Below are positions 5,535 to 20,256 of a DNA stretch of 24,830 nucleotides, in pieces. Source of the stretch: a virus; the IMG/VR virus record IMGVR_UViG_3300025435_000086, positions 1 through 24,830 of that record, one strand, 5' to 3'. Made by a program: the position numbers and the translations under genes. Positions within the stretch are counted from its first letter, which is position 1. The number at the start of each line of letters is the position of its first letter. The notes beneath the pieces are model-generated. The model made no database searches. It saw only the letters and a list, made by a program, of their open reading frames with translations, and had not been told where the DNA came from.

Positions 5535-6131
5535 ATGGCGAATTTAAACGCACCATTCGGCTTTTCAGCCGTGATTTATGGTACAAGTGGCGTTAACAAC
5601 CAGCAACAACGTGTTTACTACATTCCATCGACAGATACCTCTGCGTATTACATCGGTGACGTAGTAAAAACAATTGATGGCGGTGATGCTAATGGTACCC
5701 CTGCAATTGCAAAATGTGCATCTGGCGACACACCTCGTGGCGTTGTAACAAGCATTTTGATTTCTAACCCTAACAACCCTTCTATTCAGGGTACAAACCT
5801 TGACTTGACGACTACTAGCGTTCCTGCTTCTAAGTCACAAGCATACTACTTGCTAGTCAACGATGACCCAGACCAAGTCTATTGCATCCAAGGTGACAGC
5901 ACTACATTTGCAACAACTGACATGAATAAGAACGCATCCTACACTGTAGCTGCTCCTTCTATTTCAAATCAGCAATCTGCAACTGTATTAACAGGTACCA
6001 CCACATCTTCTACTGCAGTATTGAAGATTGTTGGAATTGAACCAATCCCAGGTAACAACTTGGGGCCTTATGTACGTTTCTTTGTATTGTTCAACAATGC
6101 AGAGTTGTTACGTCCATCTGCTGGCATTTAA
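5535..6131 (+). CDS. Probable capsid decoration / head structural protein
   Basis: A 198-residue protein, rich in Thr, Ser, Asn and Gly, with an alternating beta-strand pattern and few charged residues. It begins MANLNAPFGFSAV, an opening I associate with phage head-region structural proteins found just before the major capsid gene. There are no catalytic motifs, membrane segments or coiled coils. A decoration or capsid-cement role is the best guess from location and beta-rich composition. A GGAG ribosome site lies before the ATG, and the major capsid gene follows after 15 bases that hold its own AGGAG site. Confidence 0.68.
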   Translation: MANLNAPFGFSAVIYGTSGVNNQQQRVYYIPSTDTSAYYIGDVVKTIDGGDANGTPAIAKCASGDTPRGVVTSILISNPNNPSIQGTNLDLTTTSVPASKSQAYYLLVNDDPDQVYCIQGDSTTFATTDMNKNASYTVAAPSISNQQSATVLTGTTTSSTAVLKIVGIEPIPGNNLGPYVRFFVLFNNAELLRPSAGI

Positions 6132-6146
6132 TTAGGAGAATAAATA

Positions 6147-7088
6147 ATGGCTGGTATTATTACAACTGGTTCGTTTCCAAAAGCACTGTGGCCTGGTATT
6201 AAGGCTTGGTGGGGTCGTTCATACAATGAACATCCTATCGAATACACAGACTTGTTCGATACAACCACATCTGACAAAAACTACGAAGAGTACGTCCAAG
6301 CTACTGGCTTCGGTCTTGCTCCACAAAAACCACAAGGTCAAGGCGTTGTTTACGACTCTGAGACTCAAGGTTTCGTAACTCGTTTAACTAACGTTGCATA
6401 CGGCTTGGGCTACATCGTTACCCAAGAAGAACTTGCTGACAACCTCTATGAAGTTGTTTCCAAGCGTCGTGCTGCTGCTAACGCTTTCTCTATGCGTCAA
6501 ACCAAAGAGAACGTTGCTGCTAACGTATACAACAACGCTTTCTCTAACAGCTATGCTGGTGGCGACGGTGTTTCATTGTTGAACGCAACTCACCCTAACA
6601 CCTCTGGTGGTACATTTAGCAACTTGTTAACTACTGCAGCTAACTTGTCTGAAGCCGCTATTGAGAACTTGATTATTCAACAGATGTTAGCGTTGAACGA
6701 CCGTGGACTACGCATCAACTTGATGCCACGTTCTATCATAGTTCACCCAAGCAACTGGTTTGAAGCTAATCGCATTCTCAAGTCTGTATATTCATACAAC
6801 ACTGGTGCTAACCCTCCTGGTACTGCAAGTAACGCTGTAAACGTATTACACGCTACTAACGCATTGCCTGAAGGTATCAAGATGAACCATTACCTCACAA
6901 GTACTAAAGCATTCTTTATTCGTGCTAACGTACCTATGAATACAGGTATGATTCACCAAGAGCGTCAAGCAATCACGTTTGACCAAGACAATGACTTTGA
7001 TACGATGAATGCTAAAGCTAAATCGTATGAGCGTTATGCCTTCGGTTGGGGCGACCCACGTGCATTGTGGGGCACACCTGGAGTTTAA
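6147..7088 (+). CDS. Major capsid protein
   Basis: This protein forms the icosahedral shell. The 313 residues have the features of an HK97-fold phage capsid protein. An N-terminal arm (about 1-60, with ALWPGIKAWWGRSYNEHP) is followed by a helix-rich region with the Gln/Glu-rich turn IVTQEELADNLYEVVSKR (about 90-107), a segment with IIVHPSNWFEANRIL (about 197-211), and a C-terminal region ending ERYAFGWGDPRALWG. I see no N-terminal protease domain or delta-domain. TTAGGAG stands just before the start. The gene is placed last in the head module and a strong terminator follows 22 bases after the stop, as is common for highly expressed capsid genes. Confidence 0.92.
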   Translation: MAGIITTGSFPKALWPGIKAWWGRSYNEHPIEYTDLFDTTTSDKNYEEYVQATGFGLAPQKPQGQGVVYDSETQGFVTRLTNVAYGLGYIVTQEELADNLYEVVSKRRAAANAFSMRQTKENVAANVYNNAFSNSYAGGDGVSLLNATHPNTSGGTFSNLLTTAANLSEAAIENLIIQQMLALNDRGLRINLMPRSIIVHPSNWFEANRILKSVYSYNTGANPPGTASNAVNVLHATNALPEGIKMNHYLTSTKAFFIRANVPMNTGMIHQERQAITFDQDNDFDTMNAKAKSYERYAFGWGDPRALWGTPGV

Positions 7089-7109
7089 TTAACTCGCACG
7101 TGAGCGATT

Positions 7110-7146
7110 CCCCCTAGTTTCCCAAAAGGTCTCTAGGGGGTTTTTT
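7110..7146 (+). terminator. Strong rho-independent terminator after the capsid gene
   Basis: CCCCCTAG (7110-7117) pairs perfectly with CTAGGGGG (7133-7140) around a 15-base loop, followed at once by six T (7141-7146). It lies 22 bases after the major capsid stop. The next gene starts only 22 bases downstream. Confidence 0.93.
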
Positions 7147-7168
7147 CTCTAACTTAAAGGAAAAAATT

Positions 7169-7303
7169 ATGCCTAATAAAAAATTACGTGAAGGTCAGTC
7201 TATTGGAATGGGCGTAAAAGCTCCAGTTCAAAAGCCTACTAAAGACAAAGTTAAGAACCCAATGCAATCAACCAAAGCAAAGAAGCCTAAAGGCGGTTAT
7301 TAA
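7169..7303 (+). CDS. Small lysine-rich protein (44 aa)
   Basis: An ATG at 7169 with AAAGG eight bases upstream opens 44 codons to a TAA at 7301-7303. The product is strongly basic, with 11 lysines and one arginine, few hydrophobic residues and a Gly-Gly-Tyr end, so it is probably disordered or nucleic-acid binding. It is the first gene after the capsid terminator, and the next gene starts two bases after its stop. The family is not recognised, but ribosome site, spacing and fit between neighbours support coding. Confidence 0.68.
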   Translation: MPNKKLREGQSIGMGVKAPVQKPTKDKVKNPMQSTKAKKPKGGY

Positions 7304-7305
7304 TC

Positions 7306-7713
7306 ATGGGTACTCATATTCTTCCATTTCAAATCCTTAATGATGGCTATAGAAATGCCACATTAAAGATTGCAGGATATGTTAATGGTACAGATGTTAC
7401 CGCTTACACAGTTCTTGACCCAAGCACATTAAGTCCTATTGATGCACAAGGAACATTAGCAAAAACAGTCCGTATCAAACGTATTAATTTTGACATTCAA
7501 GATGGAATTCAAGCTACTTTAAACTGGGATGGTGCTACCCCTCAACTATTGTGGGAGTGTACTGGTCGTGGTGAAATTAAAGCTGGCCCATTTGGTGGCA
7601 TTACTGATAACGCAACAACACCTAATGGCAATATTACTTTGACAACTTTGGGTGGTGCAACAACTACCTTAAATACATCATTTGTAATTGTTTTAGAAAT
7701 TATCAAAGATTAA
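7306..7713 (+). CDS. Probable virion structural protein (135 aa, beta-rich)
   Basis: The 135 residues show alternating beta strands, few charges and a Thr/Gly/Asn-rich end. The segments NDGYRNATLKIAGYVNGTDVT (about 12-32, quoted here only as a region), VLDPSTLSP and AGPFGGITDN resemble a small protein often found downstream of capsid genes in aquatic podoviruses, which I believe to be virion-associated. No function can be shown. Its location among structural genes points to a head-tail or tail component. Confidence 0.7.
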   Translation: MGTHILPFQILNDGYRNATLKIAGYVNGTDVTAYTVLDPSTLSPIDAQGTLAKTVRIKRINFDIQDGIQATLNWDGATPQLLWECTGRGEIKAGPFGGITDNATTPNGNITLTTLGGATTTLNTSFVIVLEIIKD

Positions 7714-7714
7714 T

Positions 7715-7870
7715 ATGCAAGTAGTCAACACTAACGCTAAAGAAGCACAGATTATCGCTACTATTACACGTGCAGACGGTACAGTAGAGGAATTGGGCGT
7801 TATTGATTACTGGCATAAAAACCCAATTAAACGCATTATTTGGAGAATTAAAAAATGGCTACCTTATTAG
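7715..7870 (+). CDS. Small protein with basic aromatic C-terminus (51 aa)
   Basis: The frame opens with ATG at 7715, one base after the previous stop, and runs 51 codons to TAG at 7868-7870, overlapping the next gene by 16 bases. The first half looks like a small beta hairpin (AQIIATITRADGTVEELGVI). The second half is a basic, Trp-rich helix (DYWHKNPIKRIIWRIKKWLP) that could bind a membrane or nucleic acid. The upstream ribosome site is weak, so translation may be coupled to the previous gene. Function is not recognised. Confidence 0.65.
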   Translation: MQVVNTNAKEAQIIATITRADGTVEELGVIDYWHKNPIKRIIWRIKKWLPY

Positions 7871-8223
7871 TAAACACAGGAAAAGCTATTATTACCAACT
7901 ACCTAAACGGTGGTGCAGCTACTCAGCCTAAATACATTGGTTGGGGTACAGGTGCAGGTACTACTAGCGCAACTGATACAACATTATTTACAGAAGTATT
8001 GCCTCGTGTTAGCGGCACAACTTCTCAAGTAACAACTAGCACAACAAACGATACATACCAAGTTGTAGGCACTCAGACTGCTGGCACAAGTGAGACAATC
8101 ACAAATGCCGGTTTATTTGACGCATCTACCTCTGGTAACTTGTTTGTAAAAGGTGACTTTAGTGGCATCCCATTGAACAATGGCGACTCCATTCAGTTTA
8201 CTTTTAAAGTCCAGTTTAGTTAA
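7855..8223 (+). CDS. Probable virion structural protein (122 aa)
   Basis: A 122-residue, Thr/Ser/Gly-rich, beta-strand-rich protein with very few charges. It has a helix near the start (KAIITNYLNG), a WGTGAG turn (about 30-35), and a C-terminal strand-rich part with ITNAGLFDAS and GDSIQFTFKVQF. This layout is seen in small phage tail or baseplate-like proteins, but I cannot name a family with certainty. GGAG lies about ten bases before the ATG. Its stop overlaps the start of the repeat protein gene (TAATG), so the two are probably translated together. Confidence 0.7.
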   Translation: MATLLVNTGKAIITNYLNGGAATQPKYIGWGTGAGTTSATDTTLFTEVLPRVSGTTSQVTTSTTNDTYQVVGTQTAGTSETITNAGLFDASTSGNLFVKGDFSGIPLNNGDSIQFTFKVQFS

Positions 8224-9797
8224 TGGCAATTAATGGTTCTAGTATAAATAGAGTAGCAATTAATGACGGAGATAATATTACATTAACTCCCTCGTTAAGT
8301 GTTACTTCTACGAGTACTAGTTCCATTACCACAGTATTAAAGTTATTTAGAACCCTTATTTATGCTGTAACTTCTACAGCAACAATTAATAAAACCTACG
8401 GTAAAGCTCTAAATTACTTATCTACAACCTCCATTACCATTGGCAGGGCAATTAAAAAGTTAATGAGTAGTATTACCGAAATGTCGGTAATTGTATTAAC
8501 AGAATCAGCATTTCACCTAGCTTTGTTGTCGGTCACCGTTGTCAGCACGGCAACAATGAATCGATTACTAAGCCTATCTAAGGTTATTACCTATGCCGTT
8601 ACTTCCACAGTCAGTATAACTAAAAGCCTTACAAAGACCATCAGTTACCTATCTACAAGTGCAGTAACCATTGTTAAGTCTATTTTAAAGAACATAACCT
8701 ACCTATCTACCTCTACAGCAACCATTACAAAACAACTAGCTAGAATTCTAAGCGTCCTTTCTACAAGCTCAGTAACTATATCTAGGACTATTGGTAAGTT
8801 AATTTCCTATTTAAGCACTTCTACAGTAACTATTGGCAGGGCTATAGCTAAAACTATTTCTTATGCAGTAACTGAGACAGTAACCATAGTAAAAAGTGTT
8901 TTAAAAACCCTTTCATTCCTGTCTACAAGCTCTGTAACGCTTTTAAAGCCAATATATAAGGTCATAAGTTATCTAGTTACCAGTTCGACTTCTATGGCTC
9001 GTTTGGTAAGTTTCTTTAGGACATTGTCATATAACTCAACCGTTTCTGCCACTTTATTGAAAATGGTAGAAACAACATTAAGCGTCTTATCTACCAGTTT
9101 TGCCACTATTGGAAACTATTACCGTAAGCTATTAGCCTATGCGGTAACCACTACCATTACCATTCCAAGGTTCGTAAACAAATTTATGACCACTTATGTT
9201 GAACATACCATTGTCGTTTTGACAAGTATGGCAATGCACTTGGTTAGTTTGTCATATACCGTAACCAACAATAGCAAGCTATTTAAAAGCATAACCAAAG
9301 GGTTAAGCTACCTGTCTACTAGCGTATCTAGTATAAATTTTGGGTATTTTAGGACTTTATCTTACCTAAGTACTACAACCATTAGTATTGGTCGATTTTT
9401 AAATAAACTAATATCTTATTTATCGACATCAGTAATTACCCTAATACGTGGGTTAATTATTCACAAATTATTGGCTTTAGGGGTTGGTAATACGGTGTTT
9501 TTCTCAAAGCTGCCGATTAAGCTATTTTTTGTAGTTTCCCAAACAACTATCACATTTACTAAGCAAATGTATAGAACTTTCACCCTAGTTTCGGCTACAA
9601 TAGTGACATTAGTCGCTGCTTACTTTAACAGACTTGGTGCTGTAGTAAGGTATACGTTTACAGTAGACTTTAGAGACAGGGTAACAGAGCTTTATAAAGA
9701 GCGTTTAAGCGTAGTACAATTTAAAGACAGATTGGTTGACCTTTACAAGCAACGAACTGTCCTTGCAAACACAAGTAATAAAAAGGTCTCAAAATGA
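8223..9797 (+). CDS. Basic Ser/Thr-rich 18-residue repeat protein, unknown function
   Basis: The 524 residues hold a short head (1-24), about two dozen tandem units (about 25-471) and a different C-terminal part (about 472-524). The core unit is 18 residues and alternates a Ser/Thr strand with a basic amphipathic stretch, as in ISYLSTSTVTIGRAIAKT (194-211). A few units are 20-21 residues. In the repeat region I count only five acidic residues, all Glu, against dozens of Lys/Arg, and the whole protein lacks Cys and Trp. The C-terminus carries two copies of a 17-residue motif around FKDR and DLYK. The regular period suggests a solenoid or fibre, but the hydrophobic and basic mix would also fit membrane contact. 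It lies among virion genes, between a 122-residue structural protein and tail genes, so a tail or appendage role is possible. No enzyme motif is seen. Confidence 0.88.
   Translation: MAINGSSINRVAINDGDNITLTPSLSVTSTSTSSITTVLKLFRTLIYAVTSTATINKTYGKALNYLSTTSITIGRAIKKLMSSITEMSVIVLTESAFHLALLSVTVVSTATMNRLLSLSKVITYAVTSTVSITKSLTKTISYLSTSAVTIVKSILKNITYLSTSTATITKQLARILSVLSTSSVTISRTIGKLISYLSTSTVTIGRAIAKTISYAVTETVTIVKSVLKTLSFLSTSSVTLLKPIYKVISYLVTSSTSMARLVSFFRTLSYNSTVSATLLKMVETTLSVLSTSFATIGNYYRKLLAYAVTTTITIPRFVNKFMTTYVEHTIVVLTSMAMHLVSLSYTVTNNSKLFKSITKGLSYLSTSVSSINFGYFRTLSYLSTTTISIGRFLNKLISYLSTSVITLIRGLIIHKLLALGVGNTVFFSKLPIKLFFVVSQTTITFTKQMYRTFTLVSATIVTLVAAYFNRLGAVVRYTFTVDFRDRVTELYKERLSVVQFKDRLVDLYKQRTVLANTSNKKVSK
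8295..9635 (+). repeat. Coding array of about 24 units of ~54 bases (18 codons)
   Basis: The unit begins with L/I-S/T-Y-L-S-T-S and is followed by a Val/Thr strand, then basic residues. Clear consecutive 18-residue units start at protein residues 122, 140, 158, 176, 194, 212 and 230. At DNA level the same ten bases acctatctac occur at 8647 and 8701, exactly 54 bases apart, but most units differ strongly in synonymous positions. The array is old and held at the protein level rather than a recent DNA expansion. Confidence 0.88.
9663..9764 (+). repeat. Two-copy 17-residue repeat at the end of the repeat protein
   Basis: Residues 481-497 (VDFRDRVTELYKERLSV) and 498-514 (VQFKDRLVDLYKQRTVL) align without gaps and share the pattern V-x-F-K/R-D-R-hydrophobic-x-D/E-L-Y-K-E/Q-R. 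This motif is charged and differs from the preceding 18-residue units, marking a separate small C-terminal domain. Confidence 0.85.
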
Positions 9798-10390
9798 GCC
9801 AGTTTTATGTATATGAACACATAACAAAAGATACTAATGCCGTATTTTACGTTGGCAAAGGCACTGGCTATAGAAGTGGCTCAAAAAGCGACAGAAACAT
9901 ACATTGGAAAAGAGTTGCCAAAAAACATGGTTTTACCGTAAATATAGTTGCTCAAAATTTAGATGAAGAATTGGCATTTTTATGCGAACAAGAAAGAATT
10001 GACCAATTAAGAAGGCTTGGCGTAAAACTATGCAATTACACTGATGGTGGCGAAGGTATATCTGGTCATAAACATTCTGAAGAAACTAAAAAGAAATTAT
10101 CAGAAAAAGCTATTGGTCGAAACGTTGGACATACATTTAATGTAGGCAGAAAACAAACAAAAGAATGGAAAGAAAAAATATCAAAATCTCTTTTTGGAAA
10201 CAAATATAGGTTAGGAATACCACATACTAAAGAATCTATTGAAAAGATTAAATTCCATTCTGCAGGAAAAAATAACCCAATGTATGGAAAAATAAGAATT
10301 ACCAATGGTTTTGAAAACAAAATTATATTGCCAAATGATACTATTCCAGATGGATGGACTAGAGGTATGGCTAAAAGAGGTAAAAAATAA
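9794..10390 (+). CDS. GIY-YIG homing endonuclease with NUMOD3-type DNA-binding motifs
   Basis: A free-standing homing endonuclease, a selfish gene that cuts related genomes lacking it. The 198 residues start with a GIY-YIG nuclease domain: YVY (5-7), YVGKG (19-23), the expected catalytic Arg at R27 and a likely catalytic Glu at E65. TDGGEGISGHKHSEETKKKL (about 83-102) opens the linker and first NUMOD3-like motif, followed by basic helix repeats around 118-155 and AGKNNPMYGK (157-166). The end, with ITNG and IPDGW, is common in phage homing nucleases. The gene is much more AT-rich than terminase: 10141-10200 holds only 16 G/C in 60. It overlaps the repeat protein stop (ATGA), and the next gene starts at its last base, so it is wedged between two structural genes. 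The domain looks complete. Confidence 0.9.
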   Translation: MSQFYVYEHITKDTNAVFYVGKGTGYRSGSKSDRNIHWKRVAKKHGFTVNIVAQNLDEELAFLCEQERIDQLRRLGVKLCNYTDGGEGISGHKHSEETKKKLSEKAIGRNVGHTFNVGRKQTKEWKEKISKSLFGNKYRLGIPHTKESIEKIKFHSAGKNNPMYGKIRITNGFENKIILPNDTIPDGWTRGMAKRGKK

Positions 10391-10698
10391 TGTCACAATT
10401 TAGTTACAAGCTAGTACCAGAATCAGAGGTCTTTAGCTTTGATTTTAACCCTGTTTTGCAAACATCCGAGACCTTAACCTCGGCTACTTGCACTGCTATT
10501 ACAGCACAAGGTACAGATACAAACCCATCTGCCATACTTTCAGGAACACCCGTATTTACATTAGGCAAGGCATCTCAAAGGGTTATTGGCGGTGTCGCTG
10601 ATAATACTTACCGATTGATTATGACTTGTGGTACTAACCAGGGTAACGTTTACACCTGTATTGGTGACATCCCAGTTTATTCCCCAACGGAGATATAA
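10390..10698 (+). CDS. Small beta-rich structural protein (102 aa)
   Basis: A 102-residue, strand-rich protein. The pattern TLTSATCTAI, GTDTNPSAILSG, QRVIGGVADNTYRLIMTC and IPVYSP resembles small proteins common in phage structural modules that look Ig-like, with a conserved G-x-D-x-N-P turn and a later Gly-Gly turn. No catalytic residues are seen. GAGGT stands before the ATG inside the nuclease gene end. The following gene starts immediately after its stop. A tail or head-tail accessory role is inferred from context. Confidence 0.72.
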   Translation: MSQFSYKLVPESEVFSFDFNPVLQTSETLTSATCTAITAQGTDTNPSAILSGTPVFTLGKASQRVIGGVADNTYRLIMTCGTNQGNVYTCIGDIPVYSPTEI

Positions 10699-19305: not shown

Positions 19306-20256
19306 ATGGGCGCAGCCGCAGCAGGAGTAGCAGACGTAGTAGGATTAGGAGCAGCAGATGCAGCAGCAGCAACAGCCGCAGCAGACATAGCAGGTGGTGC
19401 GTTTACAGCAGCAGATATAGCTTCTGGTGCCGTTACTGTTGGTGATGCTTTGGCTCAAGGAGCTACTGTTGGAGAATTAGTTTCTGCTGGAGCACCGATT
19501 GGGGATTTGATTGCCTCAGGTGTCTCAGTTGCTGATTTAACTGCCGCAGGTGCTACTGCCGAACAAATTGCTGCAGCAACTCCTATGTTGGAAACTGCAG
19601 CCGCAGGTGCTGAATCTATCCCATTCCAACTTGCTGATGGTTCAATGGGTTCTATTCAAGGTGGAAACATCCTTGACGCTGCAGGTAACATTGTTGCTAA
19701 AGGTGGAGTAGGAACTACATTAGGCGACTTGGCTGGATACGCCAAGACTGGTGCTCAATTAATAGGCGGTATTGGACAATTAGGACAAGCTGCATCATTA
19801 TTGGGTGGTGGAAAAACTAAGCCAGGTGTTGCTGACCCATACGCAGCATACCGTTCACAAGCAGCTTCCCAGTTACAGAACTTACTGGCAAACCCAAATA
19901 CCATTACCTCTACTCCAGGTTACCAGTTTAACCTCCAACAAGGCTTACAAGCTCAACAGGCTCAACAAGCTGCACAGGGTCGTTTAGTATCAGGCGGTGG
20001 ATTGTTGCAAGCTCAACAGTTTGGTCAACAGTATGCTACTTCTAGCCTACAGCAACAACAAAACTTACTAGCTACATTATCAGGTGCTAATCAAGCCCCT
20101 GCAGGTGCAGCGCAAGCTCAACAAGGTATTAACTTTGGTCAAGCAGGGTTAGGTGCGTTGGGATTACAACAGTTAGCTGGAGGTGCAGCGAACGTACTAA
20201 ATCCATTACAAACACTCTATTCCCAATACAATCAATCATCTCCTTCGGTGAGTTAA
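19306..20256 (+). CDS. Probable ejection (DNA transfer) protein, Ala/Gly/Gln-rich
   Basis: A 316-residue protein. The N-terminal 100 residues are Ala/Gly-rich and contain six copies of a ten-residue repeat. A Gly-rich hydrophobic stretch follows (about 145-170, GAQLIGGIGQLGQAASLLGG). The segment about 177-265 (TPGYQFNLQQGLQAQQAQQA, then GRLVSGGGLLQAQQFGQQYA) matches a pattern common in podovirus DNA-transfer proteins: a Pro-Gly-Tyr-x-Phe helix, an Ala-rich helix, a Ser-Gly-Gly turn and a Gln-rich helix. Ejection proteins are packed in the head and leave with DNA to form a conduit through the envelope. It starts three bases after the GNAT stop and is followed by two more proteins of ejection type. 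Confidence 0.72.
   Translation: MGAAAAGVADVVGLGAADAAAATAAADIAGGAFTAADIASGAVTVGDALAQGATVGELVSAGAPIGDLIASGVSVADLTAAGATAEQIAAATPMLETAAAGAESIPFQLADGSMGSIQGGNILDAAGNIVAKGGVGTTLGDLAGYAKTGAQLIGGIGQLGQAASLLGGGKTKPGVADPYAAYRSQAASQLQNLLANPNTITSTPGYQFNLQQGLQAQQAQQAAQGRLVSGGGLLQAQQFGQQYATSSLQQQQNLLATLSGANQAPAGAAQAQQGINFGQAGLGALGLQQLAGGAANVLNPLQTLYSQYNQSSPSVS
19396..19578 (+). repeat. Six decapeptide repeats in the first ejection protein
   Basis: Residues 31-91 divide into units that begin with Gly: GAFTAADIAS, GAVTVGDALAQ, GATVGELVSA, GAPIGDLIAS, GVSVADLTAA and GATAEQIAAA. The pattern is G-A-x-V/T-x-D/E-L/I-x-A/S-A/S. Regular short hydrophobic repeats of this kind usually fold as a small solenoid. Confidence 0.8.

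What the first reader, a model, noticed from the sequence alone, without database searches (positions are those of the whole stretch)
8223..9797. Basic, almost acid-free 18-residue repeat protein in the virion gene block
About 24 tandem units make up nearly the whole protein. Each pairs a Ser/Thr strand (xSYLSTSxVTI) with a short basic-hydrophobic segment. The repeat region contains only five Glu and no Asp, and the protein has no Cys or Trp. It sits among late structural genes directly before a homing nuclease and the tail genes. I do not know a described fold or function for this unit. It could be a fibre-forming solenoid, a membrane-active array, or an adhesin that varies by repeat number.
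Basis: partly seen in the sequence, partly recalled or inferred. Interest (0 to 1): 0.82.

Follow-up and report, generated by a model that had tools for sequence, protein, structure and literature searches.

The report
Thread protein of a beaded fibre
This phage gene very probably makes a long repetitive thread on which many copies of the protein from the gene just before it (a relative of a known fibre subunit) are strung like beads, forming a flexible whisker on the virus; the repeat number could set the whisker's length.

Summary
The 524-aa ORF at 8223-9797 has 22 clear 18-residue units plus two divergent 21-residue units (lag-18 identity 0.257, shuffles 0.095, z 12.8). Residues 25-452 hold five Glu and no Asp; the protein has no Cys or Trp. 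It matches no family in Pfam, PHROGs or NCBIfam.

Its neighbours identify it. The gene overlapping its start is Pfam PF23140 (podophage GP4 fibre I protein gp80). After a mobile homing nuclease comes PF23148 (GP4 fibre-tail adaptor gp77). PDB 8JOU holds 10 chains of the gp80-type bead and 3 of the adaptor. From my memory of the abstract (paper not held), fibre I is five gp80 dimers linked by an 'elongated rope protein'. BcepIL02 has the same bead-rope-adaptor order, with a 20-residue rope annotated virion-associated.

In 65 non-redundant bead loci, 34 carry such a repeat protein downstream, against 2 of 357 control ORFs. I conclude it is the rope of a GP4-type beaded fibre, in an undescribed 18-residue sequence class with about twice as many repeats as Bcep ropes. 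Strand donation to beads, and rope length as a ruler, are inferred. AlphaFold gave an all-beta, low-confidence monomer (pLDDT 58) that settles nothing.

The parts
7855..8223 (+). Bead gene: 122-aa gp80-family protein; its stop codon overlaps the start codon of the rope gene (TAATG)
   Evidence: PF23140 'Podophage GP4 fiber I protein gp80' E 1.3e-8, above the Pfam cut-off; phrog_5417 5e-11; profile of this family has 8jou_a (140 aa, 10 chains) as top PDB hit, weakly, E 0.086
8223..9797 (+). Rope (thread) protein, 524 aa: the finding
   Evidence: no Pfam, PHROGs or NCBIfam family
8223..8294 (+). N-terminal anchor-like segment MAINGSSINRVAINDGDN...; similar short N-termini begin other ropes (MALNGKVVNG..., Bcep LYALNETPINGWA...)
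   Evidence: Alignments A2, A3; hhalign pairs only this stretch with the Bcep ropes, E 0.09
8295..9578 (+). Array of 18-residue units (consensus ISYLSTSTVTIGRAIAKT), residues 25-452; 5 Glu, no Asp
8463..8525 (+). Divergent 21-residue unit MSSITEMSVIVLTESAFHLAL, recurring in most relatives; role unknown
9186..9248 (+). Second divergent 21-residue unit MTTYVEHTIVVLTSMAMHLVS
9579..9794 (+). Non-repeat, charged C-terminus (residues 453-524), partly conserved in relatives (GAV..YTF.V...); helix predicted 484-518 at low confidence
9794..10390 (+). Homing nuclease (NUMOD3, weak GIY-YIG match) inserted between rope and adaptor; not part of the fibre
   Evidence: PF07460 1e-14, phrog_314 6e-16; absent from relatives L022, L024, L025 with 96-98% identical ropes, where the adaptor follows directly
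10390..10698 (+). Fibre-tail adaptor, gp77 family, 102 aa
   Evidence: PF23148 'Podophage GP4 fiber-tail adaptor protein gp77' E 6e-8

Best explanation
The protein is the rope (thread) of a GP4-type beaded fibre on a short-tailed phage. Translationally coupled genes make many copies of a small beta-rich bead (gp80 family, 7855-8223) and few copies of the rope. The rope stays extended. Each 18-residue unit supplies a Ser/Thr-rich beta strand that docks on one bead, and the basic-hydrophobic half links to the next bead. One rope end is held near the gp77-type fibre-tail adaptor at the tail vertex. Repeat number then sets bead number: about 24 beads, or about 12 dimers if beads pair as in GP4. 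Shown here: the repeats, the bead and adaptor family assignments, the conserved bead-rope-adaptor order, and the link between rope period and bead clade. Inferred: physical threading, strand donation, one unit per bead monomer, the ruler role, and the orientation of the rope.
For: Neighbours are PF23140 (GP4 fibre I gp80) and PF23148 (GP4 fibre-tail adaptor gp77), both above the curated cut-offs. PDB 8JOU has 10 chains of the bead and 3 of the adaptor, as expected for five bead dimers and a 15-fold adaptor per five-fold unit. BcepIL02 has bead gp55 (PF23140 2e-33), repeat protein gp56 (20-residue period) and adaptor gp57 (PF23148 6e-22, matches 8jou_D at 3e-20) in the same order, all three called virion-associated by the depositors. 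In JC1 the bead and adaptor were found in virions by mass spectrometry (PMC9144972). Of 65 non-redundant bead loci, 34 have an 18- or 20-periodic protein within 4 kb downstream, against 2 of 357 control ORFs. Rope period changes once on the bead tree (100/100 support; shuffles need 9.8 changes). The pair recurs in Rhizobium phage RHph_TM16, MW202615 (998-aa ORF) and rhizobial genomes. Bcep ropes show about 11 strand motifs against 10 bead chains in 8JOU (counted by eye).
Against: GP4's own rope sequence could not be obtained: its genome is not in the collections, and no rope-like chain was found in the PDB by profiles of the 18- or 20-residue ropes. The rope's existence in GP4 therefore rests on my memory of the abstract of Zheng et al. 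2023 (not held). The 18- and 20-residue ropes are not significantly alike beyond a 15-residue N-terminus. JC1's rope counterpart gp54 is not in its virion protein list. Some bead loci have no repeat protein (phiCbK). The period change on the bead tree is a single event, so it shows lineage linkage only. No complex could be modelled. Pairing of units as dimers is seen in one rope (38-residue superperiod in L163) but not as a general odd/even signal.
Confidence: 0.77

Rival explanations
1. A self-standing beta-solenoid or trimeric fibre: each 18-residue unit is one coil and the protein folds alone into a rod, with gp80 a separate collar protein.
For: 18 residues per turn is typical of several beta-solenoids (own knowledge). 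AlphaFold with 28 relatives gives an all-beta model with about two short strands per unit and a C-terminal helix.
Against: Confidence is low (mean pLDDT 58, pTM 0.44; three of five models near 30), and Foldseek finds no PDB match below E 1.4, only scattered solenoids. It does not explain the repeated association with gp80 beads or the shared layout with Bcep ropes.
Confidence: 0.12
2. A receptor-binding or envelope-active array: the basic, hydrophobic repeats bind lipopolysaccharide or membranes.
For: Strong positive charge and hydrophobicity (56 Lys+Arg against 13 Asp+Glu); location among tail genes.
Against: Basic charge is typical of the 18-residue ropes but absent in some counterparts (BcepIL02 gp56 30:30, MEP401 gp59 22:24), so it is not the shared essential feature. 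Separate putative tip or adhesin proteins lie between bead and rope in many relatives, or are fused to the rope.
Confidence: 0.06
3. An internal or assembly protein (ejection protein, tape measure or scaffold-like) that happens to sit in the structural block.
For: Repeats and basic charge could suit DNA-associated internal proteins; a relative gives weak, sub-threshold hits to tail tape-measure profiles (phrog_167, E 0.004).
Against: The phage is podovirus-like and needs no tape measure; the gene lies between the two fibre I genes, not with the candidate ejection gene at 19306-20256 (weak phrog_598 match).
Confidence: 0.03

Closest known systems
Fibre I of Ralstonia podophage GP4 (gp80 bead, rope protein, gp77 adaptor; Zheng et al. 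2023 J Mol Biol 168258, PDB 8JOU)
   Same: Bead and adaptor families by Pfam, and a repeat gene lying between them in the same order as in the GP4-like Bcep phages
   Different: No rope sequence of GP4 was available to compare; this rope has about 24 units of 18 residues instead of about 11 of 20 in GP4-like Bcep phages, and is strongly basic
Burkholderia phage BcepIL02 gp56 and relatives DC1, JC1, BcepMigl (phrog_19041, virion structural protein)
   Same: Position between gp80-family and gp77-family genes; tandem beta-strand-like repeats; short LNxTPIN-type N-terminus
   Different: 20-residue period, neutral charge, no significant profile match beyond 15 residues
Bead-chain neck fibres of Anabaena phage A-1(L) (gp82-gp81-gp80; PMC10966104)
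   Same: Works alike: five bead-chain fibres on a 15-fold ring at the head-tail junction
   Different: Beads are trimers that connect head to tail through their own hairpins; the model has no separate rope. Not a member of this family
Repeat regions of Rhizobium phage RHph_TM16 QIG66716 and the 998-aa ORF of MW202615
   Same: Same 18-residue repeats next to a PF23140 bead (hhalign to the TM16 repeats E 8e-9)
   Different: Repeats fused to extra globular domains; longer

Membership tests
Rope of GP4-type beaded fibre (fibre I) | Gene next to a gp80-family bead gene | tested here: met
   PF23140 E 1.3e-8 directly upstream, overlapping stop and start codons
Rope of GP4-type beaded fibre (fibre I) | gp77-family fibre-tail adaptor in the same block | tested here: met
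   PF23148 E 6e-8 at 10390-10698
Rope of GP4-type beaded fibre (fibre I) | Tandem strand-like repeats able to serve many beads | tested here: met
   About 24 units, z 12.8; beta-rich but low-confidence prediction
Rope of GP4-type beaded fibre (fibre I) | Sequence homology to the GP4 rope | tested here: inconclusive
   GP4 record not held; no rope chain found in the PDB; Bcep counterparts align only at the N-terminus
Rope of GP4-type beaded fibre (fibre I) | Physical threading through gp80 dimers in the virion | not testable with these tools
   Needs cryo-EM or co-expression; only single chains could be modelled
Free-standing beta-solenoid fibre | Confident solenoid fold as a monomer | tested here: inconclusive
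   pLDDT 58, pTM 0.44; no PDB fold match at E <= 1
A-1(L)-type bead-chain neck fibre | Beads join head to tail without a separate thread | tested here: not met
   A separate repeat gene accompanies the bead here and in 34 of 65 non-redundant bead loci

The most novel reading that the evidence does not exclude
A widespread, undescribed class of phage fibres is built as beads on a genetically encoded string. Each 18- or 20-residue repeat of a disordered rope donates one strand to one gp80 monomer, so repeat number is a molecular ruler that fixes bead number and fibre length, and evolution lengthens or shortens the fibre by adding or deleting repeats. Parity of linker lengths (18, 20) and a 38-residue superrepeat in one relative would reflect bead dimers.
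Probability: 0.45. Interest if true: 0.72.

Novelty: new variant of a known kind. Interest (0 to 1): 0.52.

Why it matters
The repeat family has no entry in Pfam, PHROGs or NCBIfam, yet it accompanies gp80-type beads in phages and prophage-like regions from freshwater, soil bacteria and rhizobia. Identifying it as a thread explains an otherwise orphan repeat protein. It gives a testable rule, repeat count equals bead count, for how a flexible phage fibre gets its length, and it suggests a self-assembling beads-on-a-string scaffold whose length is written in one gene.

Tried and rejected
GP4 and four of its Ralstonia relatives by accession, plus NC_054957: none held. GP4 structure paper by DOI: not held. 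Searches for the rope chain of 8JOU with three different queries: none found; the best hits (an addiction-module antidote, Putidacin) look like chance. AlphaFold of the bead from a single sequence failed (pLDDT 37), which cost one of two jobs. No natural bead-rope fusion that would let a single-chain prediction show the contact was found; the longest bead ORFs are 169-198 aa with N-terminal extensions. A general even/odd alternation of units (dimer signature) was looked for and not found; spacings of 16/22 in that script are register slips of the unit finder. Membrane-active array and phase-variable array were considered and rejected (charge not conserved; no DNA repeats).

Full report
1. The observation. 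The ORF at 8223-9797 (+) encodes 524 aa. Identity of the protein with itself at lag 18 is 0.257, against 0.095 +/- 0.013 for 2000 shuffles (z 12.8). A unit search gives 22 units of 18 residues (consensus ISYLSTSTVTIGRAIAKT); the first of them is the N-terminal motif. Two divergent 21-residue units (residues 81-101 and 322-342) interrupt the array. Residues 25-452 contain five Glu and no Asp, and the protein has no Cys or Trp. At DNA level there is no tandem array, and near-identical relatives differ mostly at silent sites (dN/dS 0.13-0.23). The repeats are thus old and maintained as protein.

2. The surroundings. The window is a 24.8-kb virus record with terminase, portal, major head protein, head-closure and tail-fibre genes. 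The gene just upstream (7855-8223), whose stop overlaps the rope start (TAATG), belongs to Pfam PF23140, 'Podophage GP4 fiber I protein gp80' (E 1.3e-8). Downstream lies a NUMOD3 homing nuclease, then a 102-aa member of PF23148, 'Podophage GP4 fiber-tail adaptor protein gp77' (E 6e-8). The nuclease is absent in relatives with 96-98% identical ropes (L022, L024, L025), so the native order is bead, repeat protein, adaptor.

3. Link to a solved structure. A profile of the bead family has as its top, though weak, PDB hit 8jou_a, a 140-aa protein in 10 chains (E 0.086). The adaptor of BcepIL02 matches 8jou_D, 3 chains (E 3e-20). These counts fit five bead dimers and a 15-fold adaptor per five-fold unit. 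From memory of the abstract of Zheng et al. 2023 (J Mol Biol 168258; cited in PMC12347782 and PMC11784390, but not held), each GP4 fibre I is five gp80 dimers linked by an elongated rope protein. The rope itself could not be found as a sequence in the PDB, and the GP4 genome is not in the collections.

4. The bridge through GP4-like phages. A fragment of the GP4 bead, read from the 8JOU alignment, finds Burkholderia phages of the Bcep22 group. In BcepIL02 the order is gp55 (PF23140, 2e-33), gp56 (285 aa, 20-residue period, no Pfam family) and gp57 (PF23148, 6e-22). The depositors call all three virion-associated. In JC1 the bead (gp53) and adaptor (gp55) were seen in virions by mass spectrometry, but the rope counterpart gp54 is not listed (PMC9144972). 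By eye, gp56 has about 11 strand motifs, close to the 10 bead chains of 8JOU.

5. The association is general. Bead relatives were collected from viral contigs, phage records and genomes. Among 65 non-redundant bead loci with room downstream, 34 have a protein with significant 18- or 20-residue periodicity within 4 kb, against 2 of 357 control ORFs upstream of the bead. The figure is a lower bound: several loci counted as 'no' carry recognisable but weaker repeats. Ropes range from 233 to 998 aa, and one pair (L071/L073) differs by a 76-aa internal deletion, which fits four units. Rope period (18 or 20) maps to one change on the bead tree, with 100/100 support. It is a single event, so it shows that bead and rope travel together, not repeated co-adaptation.

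6. Independent examples. Rhizobium phage RHph_TM16 has a bead gene followed by a 1661-aa protein with about 20 such repeats near its C-terminus (profile match E 8e-9). MW202615 has a 998-aa plus-strand ORF with some 30 units, hidden under an annotated antisense ORF. A groundwater relative (L163) shows a 38-residue superrepeat of 18+20 residues, as expected if beads dimerise; but no general odd/even signal was found.

7. Structure. AlphaFold on the rope with 28 relatives gives mean pLDDT 58, pTM 0.44, all-beta with a C-terminal helix; three of the five models are near 30. Foldseek finds nothing significant. This neither proves disorder nor supports a confident solenoid.

8. Mechanism and verdict. 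The best reading is a thread for gp80 beads, with strand addition and a ruler role inferred. The 18-residue class is a new sequence class of a known kind of fibre part. Whether it is homologous to the GP4 rope is unproven: hhalign against the Bcep ropes pairs only the first 15 residues.

Noticed in passing
L019:4716-7712 (MW202615.1): The record annotates a 603-aa minus-strand hypothetical protein (5774-7585) that is antisense to a 998-aa plus-strand ORF with about 30 rope repeats; likely a misannotation.
   Followed up: yes
window:9794-10390: NUMOD3 homing nuclease inserted between rope and adaptor; present in some relatives (L001, L004, L023, L026) and absent in others with 96-98% identical ropes (L022, L024, L025).
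   Followed up: partly
window:8463-8525 and 9186-9248: Two divergent 21-residue rope units (E..hVVLT..A.HLV) recur once or twice in most ropes of this class; possibly a special joint or docking point.
   Followed up: partly
L029-L040, L044, L068, L162 between bead and rope: Many relatives carry one or more low-charge proteins of 100-970 aa between bead and rope genes, absent from the window; possible fibre tips.
   Followed up: no
L102:6743-7135 (phiCbK gp72): Caulobacter phage phiCbK, known for a head filament, has a PF23140 bead (E 1.7e-16) a few genes after its minor capsid protein, but the next gene has no rope repeats.
   Followed up: partly
window:7306-7713: 135-aa gene upstream of the bead, without a match in Pfam, PHROGs or NCBIfam; a 138-139-aa gene lies in the same place in relatives (L012-L016).
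   Followed up: no
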